From: a virus
Reading direction: 5' to 3' (one strand)
Length of the DNA stretch: 29,024 nt
Virus record (IMG/VR): IMGVR_UViG_3300025138_000239
Location: 1 to 29,024 of that record
Shown here: in pieces, positions 3,931-27,333 of the stretch
How positions within the stretch are numbered: the stretch's first letter is position 1
Layout of the letters: each line of letters begins with the position of its first letter
Notes under the pieces: generated by a model
The model's database searches: none
The model's input: only the letters and a program-made list of their open reading frames with translations
What the model was told of the DNA's origin: nothing
Translations under genes and position numbers: made by a program

Positions 3931-3931
3931 T

Positions 3932-6640: not shown

Positions 6641-6644
6641 TTTA

Positions 6645-7007
6645 TCACTCCATCACTTTTTGATTATGTCGCTCAAAGAAATCATCTAAAGAGTCGCCAT
6701 CGCTCGTTGTGCGTATAGGTTGCCCCTTATTGCCTCTTCCGTGTTTCATTTGCCTTTCAGCCTGTTTTTTCATTCTCTCAAGCATCTCCGCTTTCTTTTC
6801 ATTTGCTGCTCGCATAATCATGTAATCAAGCATAACACGGTCTGGTGGTTGATCATCCCAAAAGTGAGGGGGGCAACCAAAATGAGTTCCAAGACCAAAA
6901 GTGATTGCTTGATAAGAAAGTATTGTTGCCTGAGTGACATTGAGATCGGGTCGCTCATCTTCATCTAAATCTTCATCGAGGAATGAAACTAAATCCTCGT
7001 AAGTCAA
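6645..7007 (-). CDS. Tail assembly chaperone, distal part (gpT-like), made by -1 frameshift
   Basis: 120 codons open from TTG at 7007, with no ATG near the N-terminus. It overlaps the end of the preceding chaperone gene by 4 nt in the -1 frame. It is probably translated mainly as the C-terminal extension of that protein by ribosomal slippage at CCCTTTG (7016-7010), which would give a product of about 239 aa. The sequence has an acidic start (SFLDEDLDEDERPD), a central helical part with FGCPPHFWDD, and a Lys/Arg/Glu-rich C-terminal half. The place between the tube gene and the tape measure gene, and the frame relation, match the G-GT chaperones of siphoviruses, which hold the tape measure protein for tube assembly. 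Independent initiation at TTG cannot be excluded. Confidence 0.85.
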   Translation of the reverse strand: MTYEDLVSFLDEDLDEDERPDLNVTQATILSYQAITFGLGTHFGCPPHFWDDQPPDRVMLDYMIMRAANEKKAEMLERMKKQAERQMKHGRGNKGQPIRTTSDGDSLDDFFERHNQKVME

Positions 7008-7016
7008 TCCAAAGGG
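6977..7016 (-). promoter_or_regulatory. Programmed -1 ribosomal frameshift site (slippery heptamer and hairpin)
   Basis: On the minus strand, 7016-7010 reads C CCT TTG in the phase of the upstream gene, which fits the X XXY YYZ rule. Slippage lets CCC TTT pair in the -1 frame and continues GGA TTG ACT TAC into the downstream frame, bypassing the TGA at 7006-7004. Ten nt after the heptamer, CGAGGA (6999-6994) and TCCTCG (6982-6977) can form a perfect 6-bp stem with an 11-nt loop, a plausible stimulatory hairpin. The layout matches the conserved G-GT frameshift of tailed phages. Confidence 0.8.
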
Positions 7017-7363
7017 CTTACACCAGCCGCAAATTGTCCGATGATTTCATTGAGGTCTGGGAGAACTGTTTTGATAACAGCCCCTACTTCTGGCGTAAGA
7101 TTGAGAAGGTCTTTTTTGCTGAGGTTTGGCTCAGTCTTTTGAATACAATTCGTCAAGACATATTTCCAATAACCGCCCAAATCAATGTTCGGCGCAAGTC
7201 CTCCATCTTCTCCTGTTTTGAATGAAACGAATTGTGACATGGCCTCTTGCTGCTCAACCCAAGACAAGGGTTTGACATAAACAACCAACAAACCAACTGG
7301 GGTTTCTAATTCGTGGCGTTGAGGTTTGTTGCTTAATACAAAGGGATTATTCGGATTGCTCAT
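7004..7363 (-). CDS. Tail assembly chaperone (gpG-like)
   Basis: 119 aa from ATG at 7363 (MSNPNNPF...), with GGAG about 8 nt upstream; an in-frame ATG at 7369 is possible. A longer version back to 7432 would bury half of the upstream coding end and lacks a good ribosome site. The gene overlaps the upstream SAP-protein gene by 17 nt. The protein has a beta-rich N-terminal half and a helical C-terminal half (WKYVLTNCIQKT, then a Leu-rich region), a common layout for gpG-type chaperones. Its last codons, AGC CCT TTG GAT TGA, contain the slippery heptamer C CCT TTG. Most ribosomes should stop here to give the short form, and a minority shift to -1 to add the gpT-like part. No sequence family is recognised directly; identification rests on position and frameshift architecture. 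Confidence 0.85.
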   Translation of the reverse strand: MSNPNNPFVLSNKPQRHELETPVGLLVVYVKPLSWVEQQEAMSQFVSFKTGEDGGLAPNIDLGGYWKYVLTNCIQKTEPNLSKKDLLNLTPEVGAVIKTVLPDLNEIIGQFAAGVSPLD

Positions 7364-7703
7364 CCTCATCCTCTCCTTCTTCAACAACTTCTTCTTCAAC
7401 AGGTTCGGCATCGTATTCGAGCAAACGTGCAATCAGTTCATCCTTTTTACCAGATACAGTCAATCCTCGGTTTGTTAATTCGACTCGAAGATCGGTGACA
7501 GTCATTGCATCCCATCGGTTTGTTTCGACTTCTTTTAGAGGCGCAGGTGCGCCACGAACAGATGCCGCCAAATCGGGAATTGAGGTATGAACTCGGACAT
7601 CATCGGCTGATAGCCCTGGTCCAGCCTTGACAGATATGCCGTCAATTCGCCAATCTAAACTTACTCGCTTTCCATCAACATTCACAGTTCCCGTTAATCG
7701 CAT
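7347..7703 (-). CDS. Small tail-region protein with C-terminal SAP domain
   Basis: 118 aa from ATG at 7703, which is 5 nt after GGTGA; an in-frame GTG at 7712 is less likely. Residues 1-60 are beta-rich (MRLTGTVNVDGKRVSLDWRI) and of unknown family. Residues ~66-97 (MTVTDLRVELTNRGLTVSGK then KDELIARLLEY) match the SAP helix-extended loop-helix fold, normally a nucleic-acid-binding module, with the conserved Leu, Gly and Lys positions. The last ~20 residues are almost all Glu/Asp. It lies between the tail tube and the tail chaperone genes, so it is probably a minor tail or assembly protein. What the SAP domain binds here is unknown. Confidence 0.82.
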   Translation of the reverse strand: MRLTGTVNVDGKRVSLDWRIDGISVKAGPGLSADDVRVHTSIPDLAASVRGAPAPLKEVETNRWDAMTVTDLRVELTNRGLTVSGKKDELIARLLEYDAEPVEEEVVEEGEDEDEQSE

Positions 7704-7743
7704 TGTATTCACCGTTGTTTTCTTTTGTCTTAAAGCCTCATCA

Positions 7744-9933
7744 TCAAAGCGTGAAATAAGGCGAGTTCTCCGTCACTTTGAGGTGTCGGACCGCCAGTTC
7801 GACTTGAACCATAACTGCCCCTTTGTCTTCTGGCATTTGATGGTCGGCCTTAATGATGGTATAATCCTCAATTGTAATTGTTGCATTTTCACGTGTGCTA
7901 CTGCTTCCACGCTTTTTCATGCTCAATGTAATGTCGTTTGTGTTTTGATGATGCTTGCGTGTGCGAATCTGTTCCCAAAGTTGGTCATCTTCGATCATGG
8001 CAGTAAAGGAAAAGGTGTATTCTCGCTGTGCTTCTGTAATATCAAGAGGCATTTGAACTGCACCAAGTTGAACTTGATCTGAATCGGTTGTAGCCCCTTC
8101 ATACCCTCGAATAAAGTGTCGTGCTTGATTCCCATTAGCGATGGTAAAATCAACCTGTGATGCTCTTAGAACAGGTCGGCCAAAGACTTCAAAGTTCAAG
8201 TCTTGGAATAGGTATGGCTTCTCTCCATTAACTGCAATTCCAGATGCTTTCCTGTTAATTGCTGTGTTTGCAGTATTCTCAAACATGCGGTGAGGCGTGA
8301 ACGCATTTGCCGTATCTGTGTAGTGTCGGCCACCTTCATAATCAACCTGCAACTTAACTTCACCCTCAGTATTTGCTGCAAAGGAGATTCCTTGAACTTT
8401 GCATCCATTGTAAAGGCGTAGCAACTGATTAGAACCAGGTGTTGCGTTATCCCTGCGGAATGATTGCTCAATCATAAATGTTGGAAGAGAAGTGTCACCA
8501 AATAGGGTGTGTTCAACGCCGAATTGGAGTTCTTTTGTTGTTGCATCAATGTTTGGACTTCCTCTTAAATCCGTTGCGGTGTATTGAAGTCTTTCAACAC
8601 CAGCCGATCCAACAGCGTGAGCGAAAAAGAACGGTTCTTCGACATAAACGTAATCACCATCAACAGCAATAACCCGTCGAATCTCATTCTTGAATACTGT
8701 CGGCAAGGTGTCGTCTTGACCAGGAATAGTGTGCGTATCTTTGTCAATGATTTGGATATAATCACCTGCTGTGAATAATGCCCGTATTGTTGCACCAACC
8801 TTTACTCGAACATCTCTTCGAGATATGACGGCAGTAAGAGGGGCAAGGAGATAAACGGTATTCCCTGATGCTGCTGCTCTTGCTAATGCGCCAGTATCAA
8901 TATCTGCCGCCCCTGTTAGATTTAGTGCGTCAATGCCTGTATATGACCCAAACAAAACATCGCCTGTGTTGCTTAGGGTTTTGAATATGCCTCCATTTGA
9001 AGTATCAACCGATACGTGAGTGTCGGCGGCAATGTTTGTGAGAAGTGTAATTATACTTGCTGCATCTGTTGAAGTGTTGGTCTTTGCCCCAACAAGAACA
9101 TGATCACCTGAAACCAAACTGCTTGTTCCTGTCAAAGTGCTTGATGAAACAGCACTAAGGGTATCGGTGTCGGCTGTTCCGTATTGCTGTGCTTGATACA
9201 CTTTAGTTGCGGCCTTGATGTTAAGCGGTTGTTCTCCGCCTGTAATGCCGCCTGAGCCATCGGAAAGCGTGACAAACTCGCCTTTGCTCTTTGCTACATG
9301 GCCTCCAAGCGCATACTTCATCCACCGAAGGGTGTGAGCGTTAAGGGCGAAAGAACCGCCAGCAAGCGTTTCACGGCCACTTGTCAAAACATTGACATCT
9401 CGACCCATGCCGATGATGTGTTGTTTGCGAACATCAATCTCAGGCTCAGGGAGAGAGAAGTTGTCAAGAAGTCCAAAGAACTGATCAGTCTTAACCTGCT
9501 GTGCAGCATCGGTCATAGCCGATTCAAAAGTTGGAGATCGTAGTGAATCAAGAATAAGCAAATCGGTTGTGGCGGCGTGTGAAGATCCACCTGCTGCGGT
9601 GACAAGCGAGGGTTGAACGGTAATTGTTCCAGCCGTAGTATCGTTAGCAATCACATAATACGTGCGTTTTGTTGAAGCATGGTCATCTAATGCGAAGGCA
9701 CTTCCACCTGTAATTCTCATAATGCAGCCAACAAGAGCATTGTCTGGGATTTCAACATCATTTCCACTTCCTGTATGCCAATAATTGGCTGTTCCAATGG
9801 TGATGAGGCTTGTATTGCCCGATTTAGAGGTGTGAGTCCATCCTGTTGCTGAACCTGTGCCAGTCGCCATCAATCCTGTTTCTTTGCCCCATGACACTTC
9901 GGCTACGTCACCCTTGAATATCGTTCCAACCAT
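7744..9933 (-). CDS. Major tail tube protein, enlarged
   Basis: 729 aa from ATG at 9933, with GAGGA 7-8 nt upstream. The N-terminus (GTIFKGDVAEVSWGKETGL) resembles the start of tube proteins of long-tailed siphoviruses. The C-terminal ~100 residues (EAQREYTFSFTAMIEDDQLW, then TLSMKKRGSSSTRENATITI and a strand-rich end) also fit a tube-fold terminal sheet. Most tube proteins are about 150-300 aa. The extra length lies in Ala/Thr/Ser/Gly-rich segments at about 25-130 and 225-420, probably outward-facing domains on the tube. The N-terminus does not look like a contractile sheath, and no second tube/sheath gene is present. Order (terminator, tube, chaperones, tape measure) supports the call. Confidence 0.8.
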   Translation of the reverse strand: MVGTIFKGDVAEVSWGKETGLMATGTGSATGWTHTSKSGNTSLITIGTANYWHTGSGNDVEIPDNALVGCIMRITGGSAFALDDHASTKRTYYVIANDTTAGTITVQPSLVTAAGGSSHAATTDLLILDSLRSPTFESAMTDAAQQVKTDQFFGLLDNFSLPEPEIDVRKQHIIGMGRDVNVLTSGRETLAGGSFALNAHTLRWMKYALGGHVAKSKGEFVTLSDGSGGITGGEQPLNIKAATKVYQAQQYGTADTDTLSAVSSSTLTGTSSLVSGDHVLVGAKTNTSTDAASIITLLTNIAADTHVSVDTSNGGIFKTLSNTGDVLFGSYTGIDALNLTGAADIDTGALARAAASGNTVYLLAPLTAVISRRDVRVKVGATIRALFTAGDYIQIIDKDTHTIPGQDDTLPTVFKNEIRRVIAVDGDYVYVEEPFFFAHAVGSAGVERLQYTATDLRGSPNIDATTKELQFGVEHTLFGDTSLPTFMIEQSFRRDNATPGSNQLLRLYNGCKVQGISFAANTEGEVKLQVDYEGGRHYTDTANAFTPHRMFENTANTAINRKASGIAVNGEKPYLFQDLNFEVFGRPVLRASQVDFTIANGNQARHFIRGYEGATTDSDQVQLGAVQMPLDITEAQREYTFSFTAMIEDDQLWEQIRTRKHHQNTNDITLSMKKRGSSSTRENATITIEDYTIIKADHQMPEDKGAVMVQVELAVRHLKVTENSPYFTL

Positions 9934-12254: not shown

Positions 12255-12620
12255 TTACTGGCGGAGGATCATTGGGGGTCTTCCACCTTTGCCTCGCATC
12301 ATGTGTTTAATTGCGTTTCTTCGAGTCCCACATGCTGACATTGGAACATCAGGTGTAGGGCAAGCCATATGATCGCCAAGACAAACTGGGCAATCGCCAA
12401 ACTTCATCAAATCCCATGAAGTGTCAAAAACAACATCCTTTGATTTACCAAAGTTCTTTGGATCATTCATCATGTTGTTCTCCATATTTTTCTTATCCGC
12501 AGCGACATCCCGCTTTGGTGCAAAAGGCTGTCTTTTCTTTGGATTAACTGGTTCATTATACGGCTGAGAATCAGGGTTTTTCTTTGTTGGGTTGAATGGG
12601 TTGGAGTCTTTTTTGCTCAT
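12255..12620 (-). CDS. Small Pro/Lys-rich protein with Cys4 zinc-knuckle-like C-terminus
   Basis: 121 aa from ATG at 12620, in a 4-nt ATGA overlap with the upstream gene and 9 nt after GGAGG. Residues 1-50 are Asn/Pro/Lys-rich and look disordered (SNPFNPTKKNPDSQP). Residues 77-97 hold four Cys: C77-x2-C80-x6-C87-x9-C97, plausible zinc ligands. The C-terminus is Arg/Lys/Gly-rich. It is next to a second Cys-motif gene and before the connector gene, so it is probably a minor head-neck protein. No family is recognised. Confidence 0.7.
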   Translation of the reverse strand: MSKKDSNPFNPTKKNPDSQPYNEPVNPKKRQPFAPKRDVAADKKNMENNMMNDPKNFGKSKDVVFDTSWDLMKFGDCPVCLGDHMACPTPDVPMSACGTRRNAIKHMMRGKGGRPPMILRQ

Positions 12621-15880: not shown

Positions 15881-17224
15881 TCACTCGCCCCGCAAAGCAC
15901 GTTGAGCGAGCATTTCTGCTGCTCGCCAGCCGTCGAGGTCGCTTCCCATTGCGCCAAACTCAGCATGAGTTGGAACACGGATTGAAGTTGATGGGGTTGT
16001 AGGTGTCAAGTCGCTCTTTGACAACGTATCATTTTCCGACTTGAGCATTGCGATCTCTTCACGGAGAGAGTTCAACTGAACGCCAACATCGTTTGCTTTT
16101 CGCATCTCGATTGCCTGAGTTGTTTCAACATTGTATCGCTCTTGCCATTCTTTCTCAACAAGACCCTTTACTGCTTCTTCATCTCGAAGTGCAGCGTAAG
16201 TTCGATAGCCTTTTTCCAATGTTTCAGGAGTCAAGGACTTGATAACGTTTTCATTGCCGCTTGGTGCGTTCATTGCCATTGGGCGAACACTTGGGGCTTT
16301 GATGACGTTTTGATTGCCACTTGGGGATGGGAGAGATGGATAAGATGGCTCGGTTGCACCTTCGCCAGATCCGACTTCATCTCCTTGTCCTCGGTGAGAA
16401 TAACCGCCACGACCTTGTTCTGGGAGGTAAGCCTTCTCCAAACCAAAGTGATCACGAACCGCATTCAAATCAACGCCAGATTCTTGAGCAAACTTTTCAA
16501 GAGTTGTGATGTATTCGAGTGCCGCTTCTTCCTCAAAGGATTTTTTGGCATCCGTTTTATCTTCGTTATACAACTTTTCTTCTTTCATTTCCTTGTCATC
16601 GGCTTTTTCGCTCAGTTCTTTGAGGACTGTGTTCAGTCCAGCCTTAATTTCATTTAGGGTTTCCGTATTGCTCATGTTATCATCTTCCATTTTTAGTATC
16701 GTGTAGGTTGATTCTGGGTTTATTCCTTTCTTGCACAGCGTAATTTCATGCAGTTCAAGATCGGTAATCTCTCGATGGTTGCCAAGTTCTGGTGTGGTTT
16801 TACTCACACGGAATAGGGCTTGACCCCCAATCGAGAATGCTCGCAAATCTCCGTTGCGAATCTGTTTTTGCACTTCACGTGCTTTTTGAATATCATTGCG
16901 AATCTTACATACTACGAATAGTCCGTGATCATCCACTTCTGATTTCCATACTCGGCCATCGGAGTCTGTGTGGTTGCCAACAACTTCACCGACTTGAATA
17001 CCAGAATGTGCCAACTGAACGTTGCGGAATGCTTTGTTATCCATGAATTGACCGAATGCTTTCTTTAGAGCAGCAGTTGGGATTCTATCTCCCTGCTTAT
17101 CCACCATATCAACAGATGCGTAGCCAGCAACATAAAGTTCGCCTTGACTACCAGACGACTTCAATAAAAAGTCCGAACCTTCCGCATTCCAAGATGCGGT
17201 GTGGAGTTCAAGACTGGTCGCCAT
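15881..17224 (-). CDS. Prohead maturation protease with scaffold-like C-terminal region
   Basis: 447 aa from ATG at 17224. Residues ~28-180 are a prohead serine protease of the HK97 family: GYASVDMVDKQGDRIP opens the fold, H73 (QLAHSG), S131 (RAFSIGG) and E160 (LHEITL) fit the His-Ser-acid site, and NPESTY follows. Residues ~180-447 are helical and charged, with acidic, Lys-rich and Pro/Gly-rich stretches and a coiled-coil-like end, so this looks like a protease-scaffold fusion. A 20-residue direct repeat includes PSGNQNVIK and PSGNENVIK, possible processing points. The start lacks a good Shine-Dalgarno site. It precedes the capsid gene by 29 nt, and it would cut scaffold and perhaps capsid protein during head maturation. 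Confidence 0.9.
   Translation of the reverse strand: MATSLELHTASWNAEGSDFLLKSSGSQGELYVAGYASVDMVDKQGDRIPTAALKKAFGQFMDNKAFRNVQLAHSGIQVGEVVGNHTDSDGRVWKSEVDDHGLFVVCKIRNDIQKAREVQKQIRNGDLRAFSIGGQALFRVSKTTPELGNHREITDLELHEITLCKKGINPESTYTILKMEDDNMSNTETLNEIKAGLNTVLKELSEKADDKEMKEEKLYNEDKTDAKKSFEEEAALEYITTLEKFAQESGVDLNAVRDHFGLEKAYLPEQGRGGYSHRGQGDEVGSGEGATEPSYPSLPSPSGNQNVIKAPSVRPMAMNAPSGNENVIKSLTPETLEKGYRTYAALRDEEAVKGLVEKEWQERYNVETTQAIEMRKANDVGVQLNSLREEIAMLKSENDTLSKSDLTPTTPSTSIRVPTHAEFGAMGSDLDGWRAAEMLAQRALRGE
16241..16324 (-). repeat. 60-bp-spaced direct repeat inside the protease-scaffold gene
   Basis: Positions 16241-16264 and 16301-16324 are near-identical (gataacgttttcattgccgc and gatgacgttttgattgccac, each followed by ttgg), exactly 60 bp apart. 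They encode PSGNENVIK and PSGNQNVIK, so 20 residues are duplicated in the linker between protease and C-terminal coiled region. Confidence 0.75.
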
Positions 17225-17266: not shown

Positions 17267-20200
17267 TCAAATCTCTTCGGCTTCCGACCTATCATCAGGT
17301 TCGGATTCTTGCTCATCAGCCATCCCCTGTTGCGTTTTTAGAGGCATTCTTAATGTTGCCTTGCCATTTTCAATATCAACAACGGCTTGATCCCCAGTTG
17401 CGTTATCTTTGACCTGCAAATGTTTCATTGGAATCTCTTCAACCTCTTCGGATTCTTTGGGATCGTAAAATGTAGTCCCACTATCCTCAATAAGTTCTGT
17501 TGGGCCTCTTGGTGCGGTAATATCCGCTTGAAGGCCAGACCATGCGCCACCATCTGGTGAAACCCGATTCATTCGAGGAAACATATTTTCGATGACATCA
17601 TCATCAATTGCTTGATTCACAGTCCACTTTTTGCTATCTTCTGTTTTTTCGATACCATATTCACCGCAATACATCTCAAGCATTTTCTTATTCAATCCCT
17701 TGACATTTTTCAAAAGATATTCTGTTGTTTTAGCGGTATCGTCTTTAGTGATTGCTTTACGTGTGAACTGCATAATAGCGGCTACATTGTCGCCTTCTTC
17801 GTTTTCACCAATAATTGATGGCGCACGTAGCAAGGTTTGTTTTGTTATTTTCAACTTACGTGGCTTCTTTCTTTTAGGTGTTGAATGAAGCGGTTGATAA
17901 GAACCAGCATCACTTGAAGTAAATGCCCCAGATGCGCCACCTGCCGACGATGCACCACCGCCACCACCTGCCGCAGCACCCTCTTTGAGCAAATCAATAG
18001 CAACTGGACCCCATAATGGAATATCTTTTCTTGCTTTGTCGAATATAGCATCATACCCTTCAAATGATGAGATGTTGAATCCTTTTCCATCGAAGTCACC
18101 CTTAACAATCACAGGGTCATAAATTGACGGATAAACCAATTTGATTTGATTTGGATATACAATGAGTTCAGGCATTGGCGGATAGAATGCCTTAGCAATT
18201 GATTCCTTAGCATAACGAATCCACTTAGGGTGAACTTCTTTTTCTTTCATAAATGTTGATTTGGAATCTCTAATCAATAATTCGTTTTCATCAAAATTGC
18301 TTATTGCTTTATCCAAACCTTCATGATCGGTTGATACACAATTTGTTGGCATTGGGAAGTGAACATTTTCTGTTGAGTCGTAAAGAGTTCGTAGTGCATT
18401 GATTCGATCATCAAGAGGTTCGAGGTGCAAATCCGAGCCTTTATGAACCAACAAATCAACAACTTTGAGCGTTTTTCCATCCAAATATCCATCAAATATG
18501 AAATCGCCTTTTATCTCACGAAGTTGCTTTTTAATTTTACTTGGCAATTTATCTGTTTTCAAATGGTTGCCTTTCTTTTCAACAAACATTCGCTTTCCCT
18601 GCGGCATCTTTTGAACAATCCAATCGCCCGAAAATCCCTTCAACTTATCCATGTCTTCTAATTTGTGAATTGTATATGCTGGAATAATCTTGGTTGTGAA
18701 CACGCCTGTTGGCTCATAGTCCTCGGCTTTGAGAATACTCCCTGTGGCGATAGGAGATAGCCCCCTGGAATCTAATGCTGATAAAGCATGAATGTCTCTT
18801 TGCTTTGGCATAATGCTTGATTCCAATAATGAAGGTAAAACTGCTTTTATTTTATTTTCATGAACGGTTCTTTGCATGATGTTGAAAGGTTCCTCGGCCA
18901 TGCCAAAACTGATTCCTCCGCTTTGAGGATCATGTTTCCATGTGAGCGTTGCTGGCATTTCATGACCCCAAAGATGCGTGTTTCCTGTATTGTAAATCGG
19001 AGGGGTGGTTGCGAAAGATGATGGATGAACTGGGCCAATTGATTTCAATTGCATTGCCATATCGGTTCCATTCATTGAAGGGGCTAATGCCCTGTATTCA
19101 TCCCCCATATTGACTTTCTTCATGGCAAAATCAGCCGCACTTGCGAGTTGTTGTAAGTTGCCACGTGCAAGAGTCGCTTGTTCCATATTCTTTGGATCGG
19201 CTGGATTGAGTATTCCTGAACCAAGTTGTTTCATCACTTTTTGAGCCATATTGTTCATCACTTTACCCATGTGCATGTCATTTGCTGCGAATAGAGCATT
19301 GTGATTATCCCAATATGTGGGGTTCGATGATGGGTGTTCTTCACGGAACATACCAATTCTTGGAGAACCCATGTCGGCTTGACCAGATAATGAACGACCT
19401 AAACGACTCATCATCATTTGGTCGGATGGAATAAGCATTCGGCCTCCTTGACCTTGAACTTCACTTGGATGCAAAAAGTGAAGGTTTGAAGCATGACTCC
19501 AATTCGCCCTTCTTTTTTCAAAGAACTCAGCATCGTTAAAATTGGATTTAAGAGATGCGTGGTCGGGATGTCCTTTAGCATCTGGATGGTTGGTGACATT
19601 AGGAAAATGACTCCCTCCATCGGAGTCATAGGTGTCAAGCATATTGTTTGAAGTGTTCATCAAAACATCATCTAACCAACCATTGTCAAATACTTCGGGA
19701 TATGATTGTTTCAATATATCGTGTAGTGAGTTGTAATCTCGGCCAACCCCGCCCCAGGGCTGAAATATGTCCCACCAATGATGCGTAAATGATTCTTCAA
19801 CTCCCTGCGGCATTTCGACATAAGGACTGACGAAGTGTAAATCAGCATTGGAGGGGTCACTTTTCATCAAATCAACATTTGGCATCATCATAGGCATTGG
19901 CATTTGAGCAGGGGTGACTGGCCCATGTCGATCACTTGCCCTTCTCCACCATTGAAGGAGGGGAATGAACCTTGCTCGAAATGAACGCAATGCTCGACCC
20001 CAAGAGATACCTGCTTTTTCTTGCATTTTATTTCGCAAGACTCTTGAATCAGGGGAGTTCAAATCTTTCTTTGTTCCCATTTTTTTCATAAGTCGAATAA
20101 AATGTTCACGTTGATCCTCGCTATTGTATTCAAGACCGAACAAATAAGGCAATAATCCCAAACGTTTTTGCCATTCATTCACTTTGCCATCACGGTATTC

Positions 20201-20737
20201 TTCATCGGAATAAGTGTTGTAGCGATTTCGATCACGTATCATTAAGTCATGAAGTGTTTCTTTTGGTTGCCCGTATCGGTCTGGGTCAAAATTGATTCGT
20301 TTTTCACGTTGGGCGATTTCTTTTAGGTTTGGCATAGCGTGAGCCAAATGTTCAGCATACGCAGGGTCGCCCCATGCTGCGCCATGTAGCAAAGGGCAAC
20401 TATTCGATTTCATGCCAAAGGGTTGATGTTCCCCAAATTGATTTTCAGGAGATGCAATCGGCCAATCTGTTAATGGACTGTTTGAAACTTTTGTATGACC
20501 TGCAATAAAATCAGCATGACTTGGTATCTTCATTTGAGATACGGCCATTGGTGCTGATAGATTTGTCATTCTAAACTCGGGCAACTCAGGACTCATGCCT
20601 CCAAGCATGGTTGCTGTGTCAAGTGGTGTTTCTTCACCTTCTGGTATTTGACCCGCATAATGCTTAAAATCAAAAGGACTTGCTTTGTGAATGGATATAA
20701 TTGCATCAGTTCGCAATCTGTCTAAATCCGTTGTCAT
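17267..20737 (-). CDS. Large head-region protein with degenerate ligase-like nucleotidyltransferase domain
   Basis: 1156 aa from ATG at 20737, preceded by a G-run (GGGGGG). Residues 1-680 are of unknown family, rich in His, Met, Pro and Asn with several Trp motifs (LLQWWRRASDRHG, HHWWDIFQPWGG). Residues ~700-846 follow the order of ATP-dependent DNA ligase motifs: I, QKMPQGKR (K710, R716); III, FIFDGYL (746-752); IIIa, VVDLL with PLDDRINALRTLY; IV, NELLIRD (818-824); V, KWIRYAK (838-844). The expected Glu of motif III is Tyr, and that of motif IV is Asn, and motif I has an extra residue, so catalysis is doubtful. A Gly/Ala/Ser linker (920-945), a basic stretch (PKRKKPRK) and an acidic C-terminus follow. 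It lies between portal and protease, so it may be a head-internal or ejected protein. Confidence 0.85.
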   Translation of the reverse strand: MTTDLDRLRTDAIISIHKASPFDFKHYAGQIPEGEETPLDTATMLGGMSPELPEFRMTNLSAPMAVSQMKIPSHADFIAGHTKVSNSPLTDWPIASPENQFGEHQPFGMKSNSCPLLHGAAWGDPAYAEHLAHAMPNLKEIAQREKRINFDPDRYGQPKETLHDLMIRDRNRYNTYSDEEYRDGKVNEWQKRLGLLPYLFGLEYNSEDQREHFIRLMKKMGTKKDLNSPDSRVLRNKMQEKAGISWGRALRSFRARFIPLLQWWRRASDRHGPVTPAQMPMPMMMPNVDLMKSDPSNADLHFVSPYVEMPQGVEESFTHHWWDIFQPWGGVGRDYNSLHDILKQSYPEVFDNGWLDDVLMNTSNNMLDTYDSDGGSHFPNVTNHPDAKGHPDHASLKSNFNDAEFFEKRRANWSHASNLHFLHPSEVQGQGGRMLIPSDQMMMSRLGRSLSGQADMGSPRIGMFREEHPSSNPTYWDNHNALFAANDMHMGKVMNNMAQKVMKQLGSGILNPADPKNMEQATLARGNLQQLASAADFAMKKVNMGDEYRALAPSMNGTDMAMQLKSIGPVHPSSFATTPPIYNTGNTHLWGHEMPATLTWKHDPQSGGISFGMAEEPFNIMQRTVHENKIKAVLPSLLESSIMPKQRDIHALSALDSRGLSPIATGSILKAEDYEPTGVFTTKIIPAYTIHKLEDMDKLKGFSGDWIVQKMPQGKRMFVEKKGNHLKTDKLPSKIKKQLREIKGDFIFDGYLDGKTLKVVDLLVHKGSDLHLEPLDDRINALRTLYDSTENVHFPMPTNCVSTDHEGLDKAISNFDENELLIRDSKSTFMKEKEVHPKWIRYAKESIAKAFYPPMPELIVYPNQIKLVYPSIYDPVIVKGDFDGKGFNISSFEGYDAIFDKARKDIPLWGPVAIDLLKEGAAAGGGGGASSAGGASGAFTSSDAGSYQPLHSTPKRKKPRKLKITKQTLLRAPSIIGENEEGDNVAAIMQFTRKAITKDDTAKTTEYLLKNVKGLNKKMLEMYCGEYGIEKTEDSKKWTVNQAIDDDVIENMFPRMNRVSPDGGAWSGLQADITAPRGPTELIEDSGTTFYDPKESEEVEEIPMKHLQVKDNATGDQAVVDIENGKATLRMPLKTQQGMADEQESEPDDRSEAEEI
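18200..18640 (-). other. Ligase-like nucleotidyltransferase domain (within the 1156-aa protein)
   Basis: Encodes residues 700-846. Motif order and spacing (K710, D749-G750, D761, R778, R823-D824, K838-K844) agree with the adenylation domain of ATP-dependent ligases, in compact form. Departures at motifs III and IV suggest a pseudo-enzyme or a changed activity. Confidence 0.65.
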
Positions 20738-20748
20738 CTAAACCCCCC

Positions 20749-21738
20749 TCAATTTGAAGGGGTTTCGATTAGGTCTTTGACCTGCTTCAACAATCCTTCA
20801 ATCTCTCCGATCATTCCAAGATTGTTTCGCCCTGCGTGTTTTGTTAATGATGCAAGGCGTTGTTCGATAGTGTCAATGTTTGGAGGATTCTTTCGAGTTC
20901 CGCCAGCATCATTGTAGTGCATGTGAAGGCTACTACTCTTTACTGTGTAGCCGTTTTGAGCGTATGCAGGGATTTTAGCGGTTTCACTGATAATGGATTT
21001 TTTAGGTCCGTCGTTAGTTGCAGGGTATGTGCCATTGGTTGTGAATCCGTGTGCATCAACTGGCATTCCGCCATCAACGTTTTGGAACTTGGGGAATAAG
21101 TTCTCAACACTTGATTCTTGACTATATTTTTTGAGTTCTTTTCCGCATTCCCTATCGCATTGCGCTTTTTGTTTGGATGAACATTCGGAATAACTGCAAT
21201 TAAAGTGCTTTTGACAGTATTTATTCTTCTCGCTCATGTCGGCTTTCGACAATTCTTTTCCGCATTCCCTGTCGCATTTTGCTTTTTGCTTAGGTGTGCA
21301 TTGAGAATAATTGCATTGGAAGTTCTTTTGACAGTATGCGTTTTTTGAATCCATACTTGACTTTTTCATGTCGCTCATGCAATCCGAGCAATTCATTTTG
21401 TCATCGTCGCTCATGCACACGCTACAAGTGGTGTTTTTTACGAAAATACCCATTTCTTGAAGAATCTCGGTTGTTTTGTCAATCTTGATTTTGTTGCCTT
21501 TTGGAGTTGGCATATTTGGAGGCGTTCTTTGACCACGATCTGATTTGTATTGCCCCATCTTTGGGTTCATGTTTCTTTCGATGGCTTTTGCTCTTTTCTT
21601 TTCATAACCTGACAATTTACCGTCTTTATCCAAGTCGGCTTTTTTCTTATTGCGAACTGCTTTCAACAATTCTTGCACGTCGCCTAAAAGAAGCCCTTCT
21701 GGGGTGTCGGTCATTGGATTAAACCATTGAATACTCAT
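20749..21738 (-). CDS. EF-hand and Cys-repeat protein, unknown role
   Basis: 329 aa from ATG at 21738, in a 4-nt ATGA overlap with the upstream gene and 4 nt after GGTGA; a longer start at 21768 lacks support. Residues 35-46, DLDKDGKLSGYE, are a full calcium-binding EF-hand/dockerin-like loop (Asp at 1, 3, 5, Gly at 6, Glu at 12). A CxxC pair follows (105-108, 117-120). Then come two near-identical units with Cys 136/142/147/155/159 and 175/181/186/194/198, spaced 39 residues (C-x5-C-x4-C-x7-C-x3-C). The last ~120 residues are unassigned and end in a helix. Cys-rich units may bind metal or form disulfides. It lies in the portal-protease block, so a virion component is likely. No known family. 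Confidence 0.82.
   Translation of the reverse strand: MSIQWFNPMTDTPEGLLLGDVQELLKAVRNKKKADLDKDGKLSGYEKKRAKAIERNMNPKMGQYKSDRGQRTPPNMPTPKGNKIKIDKTTEILQEMGIFVKNTTCSVCMSDDDKMNCSDCMSDMKKSSMDSKNAYCQKNFQCNYSQCTPKQKAKCDRECGKELSKADMSEKNKYCQKHFNCSYSECSSKQKAQCDRECGKELKKYSQESSVENLFPKFQNVDGGMPVDAHGFTTNGTYPATNDGPKKSIISETAKIPAYAQNGYTVKSSSLHMHYNDAGGTRKNPPNIDTIEQRLASLTKHAGRNNLGMIGEIEGLLKQVKDLIETPSN
21133..21342 (-). repeat. Two tandem Cys-rich coding units, 39-residue period
   Basis: Units at 21342-21250 and 21225-21133 encode YCQKNFQCNYSQC and YCQKHFNCSYSEC followed by KCDRECGKEL and QCDRECGKEL. The DNA is also highly similar, which points to a recent duplication. Confidence 0.8.
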
Positions 21739-22049
21739 GCTCTCACCTGTTGTTCTGCTGCTTCCCAATCCTTGAGTCTTTCATCTCTTGATTTAAGGAA
21801 TAAGTCACCGCTTCCTGAAAACGGAGTATTGTCGTTTGGTATTTGACGATTCAATGGATCGAAAGTTTCATCAGCATGGGGCGTGGTGAACTTTTTCCAA
21901 CCATGCTTTTTCATCATCACTTCGGGATCGCCAATTGCTTTTGCTAAAGAAGTGTTCTCAGCCTCAAGTGCTTGGACTCTTTGATTGAGAACTCGAACTT
22001 CGCCAATCAATTCTTTTAGAATGTCAATTTGCTCTTGTTCATCGCTCAC
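21735..22049 (-). CDS. Small coiled-coil protein
   Basis: 104 aa from ATG at 22049, overlapping the upstream stop by 4 nt (ATGA) after GGTGG. Residues 1-38 form a clear heptad coiled coil (IDILKELIGEVRVLNQRVQA, then LEAENTSLAKAI). Residues 45-85 are polar and turn-rich with KHGWKKF, and the C-terminal helix is charged (KSRDERLKDWEAAEQQV). It is part of the block between portal and protease. Scaffold or internal head functions are possible, but no family is recognised. Confidence 0.72.
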   Translation of the reverse strand: MSDEQEQIDILKELIGEVRVLNQRVQALEAENTSLAKAIGDPEVMMKKHGWKKFTTPHADETFDPLNRQIPNDNTPFSGSGDLFLKSRDERLKDWEAAEQQVRA

Positions 22050-22861: not shown

Positions 22862-24667
22862 TTATTGACTGTTGCCCCTTGAACCGCCCAAACCGTGTCG
22901 TTTTTCTGTTTCTTTGATTTGGTGGTCAATGGCTTTTTCCTGTGGAGACTTATGTTCTCTTTTATCCGTTTTTACCGATGCGCCAGTTGGCGCACCCTCA
23001 ACCCTGCGAATCATACCTGGACTTTGACCTCCGCTTTGACGTGTGTTTTCGCTTTGATTCCTCAAAGGCGGCAAATCAGTTCCAGCAGTTGTAGCCAATG
23101 AATCAGCAAAAGGAACAGACCCCCTGCTTGCATCAAAATTAGTTCGCTTGAAAAGTGCGTTTGGATCGGAGAAGGTATCATCTCCCTTTTGGACTGGCTG
23201 ACCTCCGCCTCCACCTTGTTGTTGAGCCTGTTGAGCCTCAGCCGCAGCAACCGCTTGAGGGTCGGGTTGCTTGAAATCGAAGTGGAGTATCTTGTCATCT
23301 ATTCCATCACGCAGGTTTGCTTCATACCCTGCTTGCTTCATTTGCATCATGTTGCGAATTGCCATTTCATCTCTTCGCAGTTGCATAATCTCATCCTCTT
23401 CCTCATGCGGATTCAAGACCAATTCCCATTCTTTAATTTCAAATGCTTCGATGATTTGAGGAAATAAAACTCGATTGTAAATTGATTGAGCAAAGGCAAC
23501 GGCTCTATTGCTCACTACAATTTGCATTCCTTCGTTATTGAGTCCACCACCTGATACATCATTCATAAACACATTTGAAACACCAAAGAATGCTGCAATG
23601 CGCTGGCGAATATCGTCTTTAATTGGAATGTATTGTAGTTCTTCGAGGGTGTCCATCATACGCACATATTCAAGGCCACCTCGCCCAGATTCGGTTTCAA
23701 CACCAATTGTTGGGATGTAAGAAGGATCACGCTCAAGGTGTTCCTGAATGTTTCGGGCAGTTCGCTCAACCGTTTCCATGTTGGATGATTTGATGACCAT
23801 AACCCCTCTCGGCATACGCTTCTTTTGATATGCTGAATAAACGTAATTATCCATCGCAATGAGAGTATTGACCTGTCGCCACATTGTTGCGATAGGACTA
23901 CGGCCATACAATTTACCAGGCGACCATTTGCTAAGGTGAATGACTTCACCCTCAGTATATACTTGACCTTTACCAACACCTGCGAGGTTCATGTAGTGAA
24001 TTGGAACTACTGGCATTCCAGTCACAGGGCATTTGTCTTTTGGGTCGCTGGTTCGGAATGTTCGATCAACAAGGCTGGTATATTGACTCCCGCCACGCAT
24101 ACCTCTCTTGTCGGCAAGCATACGCATGAAAATAGGGTCGGCACGTGTAATCTCTTTGACCCTAAAAAACATAACTTTCTTTGTATCAGGATCAACAAAG
24201 TATTCTTTGGTTAAAACCAAATAAGCATCATCAACGATGTTTAAGTCCATTTCAACTTCTTTCATAATTTCAATAAATGATTGCATCATGCTGTTCTTGC
24301 TTTCCAGCAATGTTTCAGCATATTCGAGTTCGGATTTATCCGCTTTACGAACATCACCGCCACATTTTTTGCATGATTCGACTTCTTGGTGGTATTTCTC
24401 TTCACATTCCCTACATTTTACTACAAACTTTGGCTTCCATCCATAGCCCTTTCTAAACGCTTCAACAGACAAATGATTCAAAATTGATCGCAGCACTACA
24501 CATTCAAAGGTTGCAGCGTAAAGTGCAGGGATGGTGATTCCTTGTAAAAGCGGAGGTTCTTGAATGCCAGATTGAAACAAAGGCATTGTTGGCTTAGGCG
24601 TTGTATGCCTTTCCATGTCAATTCCAATGGCTGAGAACAAACGTTCCATTCTCTCTTTATCAGCCAT
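22862..24667 (-). CDS. Portal protein with zinc-ribbon-like insertion
   Basis: 601 aa from ATG at 24667, overlapping the upstream stop by 8 nt. The central part fits phage portal proteins: a stretch with EVIHLSKWSPGKLYGRSPIA and the stem-wing helix region LIAMDNYVYSAYQKKRMPRG, then DDIRQRIAAFFGVSNVFMND and QIVVSNRAVAFAQSIYNRVL. Residues 85-102 add a CxxC-x10-CxxC pair (C85, C88, C99, C102) near the N-terminus, not usual for portals. The C-terminal ~130 residues are Gln/Gly-rich and disordered-looking. The portal forms the dodecameric vertex through which DNA is packaged. Order terminase, unknown gene, portal is normal apart from the inserted gene. Confidence 0.9.
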   Translation of the reverse strand: MADKERMERLFSAIGIDMERHTTPKPTMPLFQSGIQEPPLLQGITIPALYAATFECVVLRSILNHLSVEAFRKGYGWKPKFVVKCRECEEKYHQEVESCKKCGGDVRKADKSELEYAETLLESKNSMMQSFIEIMKEVEMDLNIVDDAYLVLTKEYFVDPDTKKVMFFRVKEITRADPIFMRMLADKRGMRGGSQYTSLVDRTFRTSDPKDKCPVTGMPVVPIHYMNLAGVGKGQVYTEGEVIHLSKWSPGKLYGRSPIATMWRQVNTLIAMDNYVYSAYQKKRMPRGVMVIKSSNMETVERTARNIQEHLERDPSYIPTIGVETESGRGGLEYVRMMDTLEELQYIPIKDDIRQRIAAFFGVSNVFMNDVSGGGLNNEGMQIVVSNRAVAFAQSIYNRVLFPQIIEAFEIKEWELVLNPHEEEDEIMQLRRDEMAIRNMMQMKQAGYEANLRDGIDDKILHFDFKQPDPQAVAAAEAQQAQQQGGGGGQPVQKGDDTFSDPNALFKRTNFDASRGSVPFADSLATTAGTDLPPLRNQSENTRQSGGQSPGMIRRVEGAPTGASVKTDKREHKSPQEKAIDHQIKETEKRHGLGGSRGNSQ

Positions 24668-25904
24668 TTACAACACCACTAATTAACTCATCAAATGCTT
24701 CAAGTGAGAGATTCCATGACTTCAACAACTTTACCTGCTTTTGGGTATTTGCTTGAGAATATGCCAAACATCTTAACGCATCCTCGTCATCCTCAAGTGC
24801 TTTCTTCAAAACCACGATCTCACCTTTCTTCTCATTCAAATGGGGCAACGCCAAATCAAGAGACTTGGCGACTGAGGATTCCCCCTCAATGACCAACCCT
24901 TTGCCCTCGGCTATAATTCCTCGCACCTCTAATTGAGAATTAAGTGCATGAGCATATTCTTTGCATACTCTTGAATTGAATGGTAAAATAATTCTTGGAG
25001 TTCCACGTGGACTAATTTCATAATGCCCCCCCATTTCATACAAATTGCCGATTAAAGCCCCTGCATCCTTCACTATGATGTCATTTTTCTTTAAGCCATA
25101 AAACAAAGACCTTGCATTATTCTTTGAACCTGAACCAAATGCCTCTATGTCGTAAAGGAATCCATGTGATTTGATAAGCATAGCAATTTTAGTCGTGCTT
25201 CCATCAACCCCATAGGTTTGTAGCGATTGTGTATTCATGTTCCCATGTTTGTCAAGAACCTCATGTGTTTTTTGTAGCGTCTTTCTTTCAGGGAGACTCA
25301 AATGTTGCTCTTTGGTAATTCGATTCGACCAAATATCATAAGCATCATCATTCCCATCATTCCAACTTTTTACAAATCTTCTAAACGGGATTTCTAATGA
25401 TGATGTATTTTTATGCAACATTTTCCAATCAAAATCAGTGAACGGTATTTTATCAACAAGATCGGCTGATACAGAAGGAAAGGATTTTAGCAACGATTTT
25501 CGTTCTTCAACAATCAACGGCTGAATAATTCCAACGATTTGCGTTTTCCCAGATTTGATTAACAAATCAACAATCTCAGTTCCCTGCATTCCGAAATTAT
25601 CAACAAACCATGTCTTTGATACGGGCAAGGGAGATGTAGCCGTTTGAACAGATGTTCCAGGTTGTTTATCACCGCCACCAGTATTTGATGATTCAAGACC
25701 ATCAATAGACGCTTCATCACGTGGGCTACCTGCGGCTGCTGCATCCTTTTGATTTGCCGCCTCTTTCTTTTTTTGCTCAAGTAATTTCTTTTCTTGAACG
25801 TTGTTTTTTAATTCCATCTCAACCAATTTGGTGTCGAGAACTTTGATGATTGCATCGGCGGGTGATTGAACGTCAAAAACACCCTCTATTCTTCCTTCAA
25901 ACAT
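24660..25904 (-). CDS. Unknown protein between terminase and portal
   Basis: 414 aa if started at ATG 25904, which overlaps the terminase end by 8 nt; ATG at 25940 would add 12 residues with a 44-nt overlap and no ribosome site. Residues ~30-55 are a Lys/Glu/Gln-rich helix (LVEMELKNNVQEKKLLEQKK), then a Gly/Ser/Pro-rich linker to about 95. The remainder is a mixed helical/strand domain with KNNARSLFYGLKKNDIIVKD and HYEISPRGTPRIILPFNSRV, which I cannot place in any family. It ends with an acidic helix (ALEDDEDALRCLAYSQANTQ). A packaging or portal-associated role is a guess from position. Confidence 0.8.
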   Translation of the reverse strand: MFEGRIEGVFDVQSPADAIIKVLDTKLVEMELKNNVQEKKLLEQKKKEAANQKDAAAAGSPRDEASIDGLESSNTGGGDKQPGTSVQTATSPLPVSKTWFVDNFGMQGTEIVDLLIKSGKTQIVGIIQPLIVEERKSLLKSFPSVSADLVDKIPFTDFDWKMLHKNTSSLEIPFRRFVKSWNDGNDDAYDIWSNRITKEQHLSLPERKTLQKTHEVLDKHGNMNTQSLQTYGVDGSTTKIAMLIKSHGFLYDIEAFGSGSKNNARSLFYGLKKNDIIVKDAGALIGNLYEMGGHYEISPRGTPRIILPFNSRVCKEYAHALNSQLEVRGIIAEGKGLVIEGESSVAKSLDLALPHLNEKKGEIVVLKKALEDDEDALRCLAYSQANTQKQVKLLKSWNLSLEAFDELISGVVNG

Positions 25905-27333
25905 TTGCCCATCCCAACCTTCCTTGCCATAATTCAGCATCTAAAATGACGATGCTATCTCGATATTCTTTTGTTGCTTGAACGCCTAATGCGAGAGCAA
26001 TAACCATGTCGTCGTGACCGCCCAAACTCTCCATCCTCCCGTTATCCAACATAGTGAACGTGGAGAGTTCAGTCAATAAAGTGTTCATCAATCTCCGTGT
26101 CCCTCCTTCGTCTTTGTAGGGTATATTCAACTTGCCCTGTTCAAATTGCAGTTGGAGGGTATGAATTAAAGCCTCTTTCTTCATACGGCTCATATTGAAT
26201 GGTTTTATTGGAAGATCGCTGATTTCGTTTAGCACTTGATTGAATGCAATTGCGAAGTTGTTTGTTTCAAGTTCGATGATAACTGGATTGAAGCGAGCAT
26301 TCAATTCAATGATTTTGTCAATTTGAGATGAAAAGTCCATTCCCTTTTCGTGATGAGTATGAATGATGTGTTTGTTTTTGTTTTCATCAACGGCAATAAC
26401 CATCATGCACGTGTAGTCGGCTCTCCGATCTGCTGAGATTGCAGGATCCCATCCGATGTAATAGTTGTAGGCTTCGCCATCATGCGGATAGTAAGACAAC
26501 GCTAACTCTTCGTCTTTGACTTTGTTTAGCACCTCTTCTGGGAATAGACTTGCTTCGCTCGCAATTGGTTTGCACAGGTATTCTCTTGTGAATGCAATAG
26601 AAGTCATATCATTGCGTCTTGAGTTCAATGCCTCCATATCCCAACGCTCAGGGAACAAACATTCTCCTGTTTGCTCATTGATAGCGGGATATTCTCGAAC
26701 AGCGTATGATTTTAATTTCTTCAATTCAGCGTAAAGATCGGTATATGAAAACGGAGTTCCAACAATACATAACTGGGCTGTGTGGTGAAGAACTGGCAAT
26801 AATGCTGTGTAAAACCATGAGGATATGTGCTTGAGTTGGGTTTGCGCCTCACTTGACAAAATATCGTCAAGCACTACGATTTGAGGGTGCGCCCCACGAA
26901 CTGCTTTCCCGACAGACATAGCCGATATGGATGATTTGTTGGTGAACTTGAACTTCTGTTTCGCCCATCCTCTTTTTGGCTTGAGATGTTGTAATGCAGG
27001 GATTGATTCAATCAACTCATTCATTTTACCCATGTGTTCGATAGATTGGTGTTGGCTGTGAGAGAAGAAAAGAACTTCTGTGCCAGGATTGTAAGCCATT
27101 TTCCAAAGGAGATAAACCCGATAAAATACAGATTTTCCATGATCACGACTGGCAATAATGCAGGTCTTACTATTCCCTTCGGATAACTCAAACCATTCTT
27201 GGTGAAACTTTGTTAAAATCCAGGGATTCTTTGCTTCATACTTCCCACATACCTCTTCAAAAAAATACTTGAAATCACGGCGACCCATTTCAAAATCAAC
27301 ATTAGCAGTTAATTGTTTGAGGGCTTCGGACAT
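25897..27333 (-). CDS. terL: Terminase large subunit (ATPase and nuclease)
   Basis: 478 aa from ATG at 27333, 6 nt after GGTGA. The N-terminal ATPase has a Walker A-like loop at 61-69 (ASRDHGKSV, a known variant form), Walker B with D156-D157 (IVVLDD), and a coupling motif with IVGTPFSYTDL (190-200). The C-terminal RNase H-like nuclease has D296 (GWDPA), an acidic pair near 354-356 (IELETNN), and H440-D441-D442 (GHDDMVIALAL). The length is typical. It drives DNA into the prohead and cuts the concatemer. No convincing small terminase subunit is in the window. Confidence 0.95.
   Translation of the reverse strand: MSEALKQLTANVDFEMGRRDFKYFFEEVCGKYEAKNPWILTKFHQEWFELSEGNSKTCIIASRDHGKSVFYRVYLLWKMAYNPGTEVLFFSHSQHQSIEHMGKMNELIESIPALQHLKPKRGWAKQKFKFTNKSSISAMSVGKAVRGAHPQIVVLDDILSSEAQTQLKHISSWFYTALLPVLHHTAQLCIVGTPFSYTDLYAELKKLKSYAVREYPAINEQTGECLFPERWDMEALNSRRNDMTSIAFTREYLCKPIASEASLFPEEVLNKVKDEELALSYYPHDGEAYNYYIGWDPAISADRRADYTCMMVIAVDENKNKHIIHTHHEKGMDFSSQIDKIIELNARFNPVIIELETNNFAIAFNQVLNEISDLPIKPFNMSRMKKEALIHTLQLQFEQGKLNIPYKDEGGTRRLMNTLLTELSTFTMLDNGRMESLGGHDDMVIALALGVQATKEYRDSIVILDAELWQGRLGWANV

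What the first reader, a model, noticed from the sequence alone, without database searches (positions are those of the whole stretch)
18200..18640. Degenerate ATP-ligase-like domain inside a 1156-aa head-region protein
All main nucleotidyltransferase motifs occur in order (K710, FIFDGYL, PLDDRINALRTLY, NELLIRD, KWIRYAK), but the conserved Glu of motifs III and IV are replaced and motif I has an extra residue. A ligase-like domain fused to large unknown regions in a portal-protease block is not a standard morphogenesis gene. It could be a structural pseudo-enzyme that binds nucleotide or DNA ends, or a delivered enzyme with changed chemistry.
Basis: partly seen in the sequence, partly recalled or inferred. 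Interest (0 to 1): 0.8.

Follow-up and report, generated by a model that had tools for sequence, protein, structure and literature searches.

The report
Dead DNA-ligase fold in virus head operon
A large protein made from the capsid-building gene block of viruses of ocean archaea carries a DNA-ligase-shaped domain whose catalytic residues have been lost but which evolution still conserves tightly, while related viruses keep a working-looking ligase at the same spot in their genomes.

Summary
Residues 700-846 of a real 1156-aa gene (window 17267-20737, minus strand), between portal and prohead protease, carry the ATP-ligase motif order. A structure model (pLDDT 76) matches only ATP-dependent DNA ligases in PDB (top 50, best E 1.4e-07). 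K710 is not the ligase lysine. A gapless profile alignment puts the catalytic Lys at 711 (Met in 12 of 23 relatives, Lys in 11). KxDG Asp and motif III Glu are absent in all 23; motif IV Glu is kept in 5 and motif V Lys in 1. Yet dN/dS is 0.025-0.06, the lowest in the protein. It is therefore a constrained pseudo-ligase, not a decaying gene.

New here: other tailed viruses carry an intact ligase domain in the same gene block. One group shares homologous portal, protease and capsid protein with the window. The window domain resembles these ligases far more (hhalign E 4.4e-08) than cellular or T7-type ligases (E 0.002). A relative lies on a 106-kb contig of a Ca. Poseidoniales single-cell genome, which points to the host. 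Best reading: an enzyme at this slot became a non-catalytic head-assembly or DNA-binding module. Presence in the virion is inferred, not shown.

The parts
17267..20737 (-). 1156-aa head-block protein (P0001) carrying the pseudo-ligase domain
   Evidence: 37 homologous loci in viral contigs and one in a Poseidoniales single-cell genome
18188..18670 (-). Residues 690-850: degenerate ATP-ligase adenylation (nucleotidyltransferase) domain
   Evidence: AF2 model then Foldseek: all top 50 PDB hits are ATP-dependent DNA ligases; PF01068 matches 9 of 14 domain sequences; dN/dS 0.025-0.06
18572..18622 (-). Degenerate motif I (residues 706-722, WIVQKMPQGKRMFVEKK); catalytic-Lys position 711 = Met, KxDG Asp position 713 = Gln
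   Evidence: gapless hhalign; column counts
18482..18502 (-). Degenerate motif III (residues 746-752, FIFDGYL): Asp749 kept, Glu replaced by Tyr751
   Evidence: Tyr 22/23, Phe 1/23
18380..18469 (-). Motif IIIa strand and helix (residues 757-786, LKVVDLLVHKGSDLHLEPLDDRINALRTLY), best preserved part
   Evidence: Asp761, Leu775, Arg778 invariant; aligned
18266..18292 (-). Degenerate motif IV (residues 816-824, DENELLIRD)
   Evidence: Glu at position 818 in 5/23 only; Arg823 and Asp824 invariant
18206..18232 (-). Degenerate motif V (residues 836-844, HPKWIRYAK)
   Evidence: Trp839 invariant; the motif V Lys position 841 is Arg/Leu/Thr, Lys in 1/23
18005..18187 (-). Residues 851-911: beta-rich module at the place of the ligase OB domain (position and strands only)
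   Evidence: model strands at domain residues 202-238; Foldseek alignments of about 280-300 columns run through it
19103..20737 (-). Residues 1-545: mostly helical region with no known fold
   Evidence: AF2 model mean pLDDT 68; best PDB hit E 1.4, i.e. none
18818..19102 (-). Residues 546-640: beta module with invariant Trp590-Gly591 and Gln622-Arg-Thr-x-His-Glu627
17270..17992 (-). Residues 916-1156: glycine-rich linker, basic KRKKPRKLK patch and C-terminal region
   Evidence: sequence
22862..24667 (-). Portal protein with zinc-ribbon insert
   Evidence: PF04860 E 1e-13; 28% identity to HVTV-1 gene 112 product
15881..17224 (-). Prohead (S78) protease, directly downstream
   Evidence: PF04586 E 2.9e-11; 43% identity over 147 aa to the protease of the intact-ligase virus L109
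14703..15866 (-). HK97-fold major capsid protein
   Evidence: phrog_24667 E 8.9e-49; 34% identity to the capsid protein of L109
25897..27333 (-). Terminase large subunit
   Evidence: phrog_38 E 1.8e-73

Best explanation
The protein is a head-morphogenesis component of tailed viruses of Poseidoniales (Marine Group II) archaea. Its residues 690-911 descend from an ATP-dependent DNA ligase core that sits in the same portal-to-protease gene block in related viruses, and that has lost adenylation and ligation chemistry in this lineage. I propose that the ligase fold is kept as a structural module binding duplex DNA or a partner protein near the portal or inside the prohead. The long helical N-terminal half would anchor it in the prohead, and the neighbouring prohead protease may mature it. 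Shown: the fold (by prediction), the loss of catalytic residues, the strong purifying selection, the conserved gene position, and intact counterparts in viruses with homologous portal, protease and capsid proteins. Inferred: descent from that slot ligase rather than later replacement, presence in the virion, and DNA or partner binding.
For: Fold: AF2 model of the domain (pLDDT 76) gives only ATP-dependent DNA ligases among the top 50 PDB hits, best E 1.4e-07, prob 1.00. PF01068 matches 9 of 14 members, best E 7.7e-4, and E 9.4e-06 in one relative. Loss of chemistry, from 23 sequences: position 711 Met 12 / Lys 11; KxDG Asp 0/23; motif III Glu 0/23; motif IV Glu 5/23; motif V Lys 1/23. Constraint: dN/dS 0.025-0.06 for residues 690-850, the lowest of the protein. 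Slot ligases: TerL - portal - ligase polyprotein - protease/capsid order in L107/L109, L113-L118, with PF01068 above cut-off. hhalign of the domain to these: prob 94.9, E 4.4e-08, against E 0.002 for cellular archaeal and for T7/LigD-type phage ligases. L109 shares homologous protease (43%), capsid protein (34%) and portal. Host: TerL 78% identical in the same contig of Poseidoniales single-cell genome AG-422-I20.
Against: No virion proteome or structure exists, so the structural role rests on gene position. The helical N-terminal region is not shared with the slot ligases, so a separate acquisition of a ligase domain is possible. Every one of the 23 sequences has a Lys at 710 or 711, which leaves a small opening for retained covalent chemistry. 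The domain model comes from a shallow alignment (14 sequences); the five models range over pLDDT 58-76 and TM-scores are about 0.4-0.5. The better score against slot ligases may partly reflect that profile's greater diversity.
Confidence: 0.6

Rival explanations
1. Packaged and ejected protein: the protein travels inside the head and enters the cell with the genome. There the pseudo-ligase binds incoming DNA ends or a host factor, for example protecting or bridging ends for circularisation by the host NAD-dependent ligase.
For: Same gene slot in HVTV-1 (homologous portal and protease) holds a 1313-aa protein with zeta-toxin and ADP-ribosyltransferase domains, an effector-like make-up. Other viruses hold metallo-beta-lactamase or methyltransferase plus ligase there. 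Poseidoniales relatives have only NAD-dependent ligase (28 of 30; ATP-type 0 of 30). Poseidoniales viruses carry many ORFs with a common N-terminal peptide that could be a packaging tag.
Against: This protein lacks that peptide at its N-terminus. No catalytic domain was recognised in the rest of it. No direct evidence of packaging.
Confidence: 0.22
2. Active nucleotidyltransferase with changed chemistry, using Lys710 or Lys711 for AMP or GMP transfer to protein, RNA or DNA.
For: A Lys stands at 710 or 711 in all 23 sequences. Arg716, Asp749, Asp761, Arg823, Asp824 and Trp839 are (nearly) invariant.
Against: The Asp of KxDG and the Glu of motif III are missing in every sequence, the Glu of motif IV and Lys of motif V in most. 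No unusual alternative metal-binding cluster was seen.
Confidence: 0.08
3. Cytoplasmic (non-virion) accessory protein for packaging or repair that merely sits in the head operon, such as an adaptor recruiting the host ligase or the terminase.
For: Ligases act in DNA metabolism; no separate ATP ligase or PolB was detected in the sibling contigs.
Against: Position inside the tight block portal - small proteins - this gene - protease - capsid, 12 bp from its upstream neighbour, with the same order in sibling G003 and in the single-cell virus.
Confidence: 0.08
4. Chance resemblance: a helical or beta structural protein that only mimics ligase motifs.
For: The window protein alone has no Pfam, PHROG or PDB sequence match, and the family profile finds no ligase in PDB sequences.
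Against: Foldseek, PF01068 on homologues, and profile comparison with shuffled and reversed controls agree.
Confidence: 0.02

Closest known systems
ATP-dependent DNA ligase core (Pfam PF01068 DNA_ligase_A_M)
   Same: Order of motifs and secondary structure, fold by model and Foldseek, motif IIIa strand-helix, Trp of motif V, following beta module at the OB place
   Different: Catalytic Lys, KxDG Asp, motif III and IV Glu and motif V Lys not conserved; below the Pfam cut-off; fused to more than 650 residues of unknown fold
Head-block ligase polyproteins of other tailed viruses (L107-L118 here)
   Same: Large multidomain protein between portal and protease/capsid genes; ligase domain closest by profile
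   Different: They have an intact catalytic Lys and Gly-x-Arg in motif I and GSEG in motif IV, and other partner domains (metallo-beta-lactamase, methyltransferase, or fusion to the XkdF protease)
ANMV-1 virus ATP-dependent DNA ligase (KP703175, AJP62006)
   Same: 866-aa virus-encoded protein with a PF01068 domain and relatives among the slot ligases
   Different: Intact motifs (KKFDGVHVR, GSEG); no homologous N-terminal half
HVTV-1 gene 115 'zeta toxin' protein (Druskaviridae)
   Same: Over 1100 aa, same gene slot, in a virus with homologous portal, protease and capsid protein
   Different: Zeta-toxin and ADP-ribosyltransferase domains, no ligase domain; no sequence similarity to this protein
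ICTV family Satyavativiridae (order Adrikavirales), Poseidoniales viruses
   Same: Host, size class, HVTV-1-like capsid gene block, no recognised PolB replisome (PMC13108676 description)
   Different: Its reference genome PP497040 is not held, so sequence membership was not tested

Membership tests
ATP-dependent DNA ligase (catalytic) | Nucleotidyltransferase fold followed by OB-type module | tested here: met
   AF2 model and Foldseek, top 50 PDB hits all DNA ligases; predicted, not solved
ATP-dependent DNA ligase (catalytic) | Motif I KxDG(x)R with nucleophilic Lys | tested here: not met
   Position 711 Met 12 / Lys 11, position 713 never Asp in 23 sequences; gapless register
ATP-dependent DNA ligase (catalytic) | Glu of motif III and motif IV | tested here: not met
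   Tyr/Phe in 23/23 at III; Glu in 5/23 at IV
ATP-dependent DNA ligase (catalytic) | Lys of motif V | tested here: not met
   Lys in 1/23 at position 841
ATP-dependent DNA ligase (catalytic) | Family profile score above the curated cut-off | tested here: not met
   PF01068 best 19.3 bits in the wider family, cut-off 26.2
ATP-dependent DNA ligase (catalytic) | Adenylation and nick sealing | not testable with these tools
   needs biochemistry
Head-block ligase polyproteins | Gene between portal and prohead protease in a tailed virus | tested here: met
   window gene order and L083; counterpart order in L107, L109
Head-block ligase polyproteins | Ligase domain of the same sequence family | tested here: met
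   hhalign prob 94.9, E 4.4e-08, shuffle control passed
Head-block ligase polyproteins | Intact ligase motifs | tested here: not met
   against A4 invariant Lys, Gly, Arg and GSEG
Head-block ligase polyproteins | Shared other domains (EEERKKWWP domain, beta-lactamase, phosphoesterase-like region) | tested here: not met
   no match in hhalign of the full protein nor Pfam
mRNA capping enzyme / RNA ligase | Closer to capping enzymes or RNA ligases than to DNA ligases | tested here: not met
   DNA ligases rank first in PDB and lead among named BFVD hits; capping enzymes are weaker BFVD hits
Virion structural or ejected protein | Presence in purified virions | not testable with these tools
   no cultured virus, no proteome
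Satyavativiridae / Adrikavirales | Sequence relationship to Poseidoniales virus P01 (PP497040) | not tested
   record not held

The most novel reading that the evidence does not exclude
A tailed-virus lineage has turned a virion-linked DNA ligase into a conserved, non-catalytic part of the head that grips the DNA end at the portal: an enzyme fold recruited as a capsid or packaging component, with the ancestral active form still present at the same gene slot in sister viruses.
Probability: 0.35. Interest if true: 0.8.

Novelty: new variant of a known kind. Interest (0 to 1): 0.6.

Why it matters
Ligase-fold pseudoenzymes in virus head-gene blocks did not turn up in the searched literature. If right, it shows an enzyme-to-structure transition with both states preserved at one genomic position, and it makes testable whether some archaeal tailed viruses carry ligases in or near the capsid. 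It also corrects an annotation trap: these proteins could be called 'DNA ligase' on weak profile hits although the chemistry is gone. The host link to Poseidoniales, abundant uncultured ocean archaea that here show only NAD-dependent ligase, adds ecological weight.

Tried and rejected
Single-sequence searches of the protein (Pfam, PHROGs, PADLOC, PDB sequences, tblastn in 50,697 phage records) found nothing significant. A family profile against PDB sequences gave only chance repeats. Homology of the whole protein to HVTV-1 gene 115 or 113: none. A phosphoesterase-like region shared with slot ligases: none. N-terminal region against PDB folds: nothing. First hhalign run used a wrong global setting and was discarded. 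Magrovirus and Poseidoniales virus reference records ON649702, OR863078 and PP497040 are not held. Capture of the domain from present hosts was considered and is unlikely: no ATP ligase in 30 relatives of the single-cell genome.

Full report
WHAT IS THERE. The window is a 29,024-base virus record that encodes on its minus strand a tailed-virus head and tail block: terminase large subunit, a 426-aa protein, portal, four small or medium proteins, the 1156-aa protein in question, S78 prohead protease, HK97-fold major capsid protein and tail genes.

RELATIVES. Two scans of viral contigs gave up to 37 loci with 42-100% identity; contigs reach 96.6 kb. Alignment A2 (23 sequences) shows that residues 640-860 are among the most conserved of the protein. 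One relative lies on a 106-kb contig of a single-cell genome of Ca. Poseidoniales, AG-422-I20, together with a terminase 78% identical to the window's. The host group is therefore most likely Poseidoniales, with the usual caution about single-cell contamination. No PolB and no other ATP ligase was found in the sibling contigs. This fits the description of Satyavativiridae rather than replisome-carrying magroviruses (PMC13108676, PMC10768690, PMC12999244), but membership could not be tested because the reference record is not held.

THE FOLD. The window sequence alone has no profile match (NCBIfam NHEJ ligase only at E 0.17 over residues 756-842). Nine of 14 homologous domain sequences match PF01068 (best E 7.7e-4). 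In sibling genomes the PF01068 search finds only this domain (E down to 9.4e-06, below the cut-off). An AlphaFold2 model of residues 655-911 (pLDDT 76) has the strand-helix order of an adenylation domain followed by a beta module. Foldseek lists ATP-dependent DNA ligases for all of the top 50 PDB hits (best E 1.4e-07, prob 1.00), and DNA ligases lead among the named hits in the viral library too. TM-scores are modest (about 0.4-0.5), probably because of inter-domain orientation and a shallow alignment.

THE CATALYTIC RESIDUES. Profile alignment with seven intact viral ligases is gapless across motif I (WIVQKMPQGKRMFVEKK over YALEKKFDGLRVVLIKT). The catalytic Lys position is therefore residue 711, which is Met in the window, and there is no extra residue. 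Counts over 23 sequences: 711 Met 12 / Lys 11; Asp of KxDG 0; Glu of motif III 0 (Tyr 22, Phe 1); Glu of motif IV 5; Lys of motif V 1. Scaffold residues Gly714, Asp749, Asp761, Leu775, Arg778, Arg823, Asp824 and Trp839 are invariant. A Lys is present at 710 or 711 in every sequence, which is the one observation that keeps an altered chemistry open. The domain is nonetheless under the strongest purifying selection of the protein (dN/dS 0.025-0.06), so it is functional in some non-standard way. The synonymous distances in these pairs are near saturation, so the ratios are approximate.

INTACT COUNTERPARTS AT THE SAME GENE SLOT. A PF01068 search over the phylum of the single-cell genome led to a 9.8-kb contig (L107) with terminase, portal, a small ORF, an 1146-aa protein with metallo-beta-lactamase and intact ligase domains (VMKIDGMR, GSEG), and a prohead protease. 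Viral contigs L108-L118 extend this: ligase domains with a Lys-x-(D/N/G)-G-x-R motif I and GSEG in large proteins after the portal gene and before the protease or capsid gene (in L114 fused to the XkdF protease). ANMV-1 has a related ligase. The capsid protein, protease and portal of L107/L109 are homologous to the window's (34%, 43% over 147 aa, 20% over 435 aa). The window domain matches this ligase set with E 4.4e-08, against 0.002 for archaeal cellular and for T7/LigD-type phage ligases. Shuffled (200) and reversed controls stay far below. In HVTV-1, whose portal and protease are also homologous, the slot holds a zeta-toxin plus ADP-ribosyltransferase protein. The slot between portal and protease thus seems to host large, changing, enzyme-bearing proteins.

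HOW IT MOST LIKELY WORKS. Inference: an ancestor carried an active ligase fused to a head-associated protein. In the Poseidoniales virus lineage the chemistry was lost and the ligase clamp fold was kept as a binding module for duplex DNA or a head partner, while the helical N-terminal half (no known fold) provides assembly contacts. That the protein is in the virion is inferred from gene position only. The ejected-protein version is the main rival.

NOVELTY AND SCORE. DNA ligases of tailed viruses are well known as replication enzymes (from general knowledge). A conserved, catalytically dead ligase fold in the capsid gene block, with intact versions at the same slot in sister viruses, was not found in the searched papers. 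I rate it a new variant of a known kind, interest 0.6.

Noticed in passing
L067 (G003, 96.6-kb sibling contig) 1148-8632 + strand; L070 4670-5423 + and 10891 -; L083 6896 and 7543 +; window about 12404-12428 (minus) internal: About 15 otherwise different ORFs in one sibling genome begin with nearly the same peptide, M-[TNS]-x-F-D-x-A-W-x-L-L/M-K (e.g. MTAFDTAWDLLK), and two more in the Poseidoniales single-cell virus. It looks like a shared N-terminal tag, possibly a capsid-targeting or prohead-protease signal like the T4 capsid-targeting sequence. Two tagged proteins continue with APYHGTT / APFHGTT, resembling ADP-ribosyl or RNA 2'-phosphotransferase starts (from memory, untested). This may deserve its own study.
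   Followed up: partly
L083 (CACGHY010000002.1 72406-95681): A Poseidoniales single-cell genome contig of 106 kb carries a relative of this virus, a likely captured infection linking the virus group to its host.
   Followed up: partly
G023-G052 (relatives of the single-cell genome): 28 of 30 genomes have an NAD-dependent DNA ligase and none an ATP-dependent one, unusual for archaea.
   Followed up: partly
L064:6557-10498 (HVTV-1 gene 115): Besides the annotated zeta toxin, the protein has a C-terminal ADP-ribosyltransferase domain (PF03496 E 1.4e-08, residues 1148-1297).
   Followed up: no
L114:4580-10111: A 1844-aa ORF fuses an intact ligase domain to an XkdF-type prohead protease (PF14550 E 3.1e-25).
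   Followed up: no
window 20749-21768 (minus): The protein just upstream of the finding has two near-repeats of a cysteine-rich motif (CQKNFQCNYSQCTPKQKAKCDRECGKEL / CQKHFNCSYSECSSKQKAQCDRECGKEL), no family match.
   Followed up: no
window 24660-25940 (minus): A 426-aa protein between terminase and portal, with a similar-sized ORF at the same place in the single-cell virus, has no recognised family.
   Followed up: no
L067:2202-3071: Sibling virus encodes an HMG-CoA-lyase-like enzyme (PF00682 E 1.4e-25), also reported for Aoguangviridae (PMC10768690).
   Followed up: no
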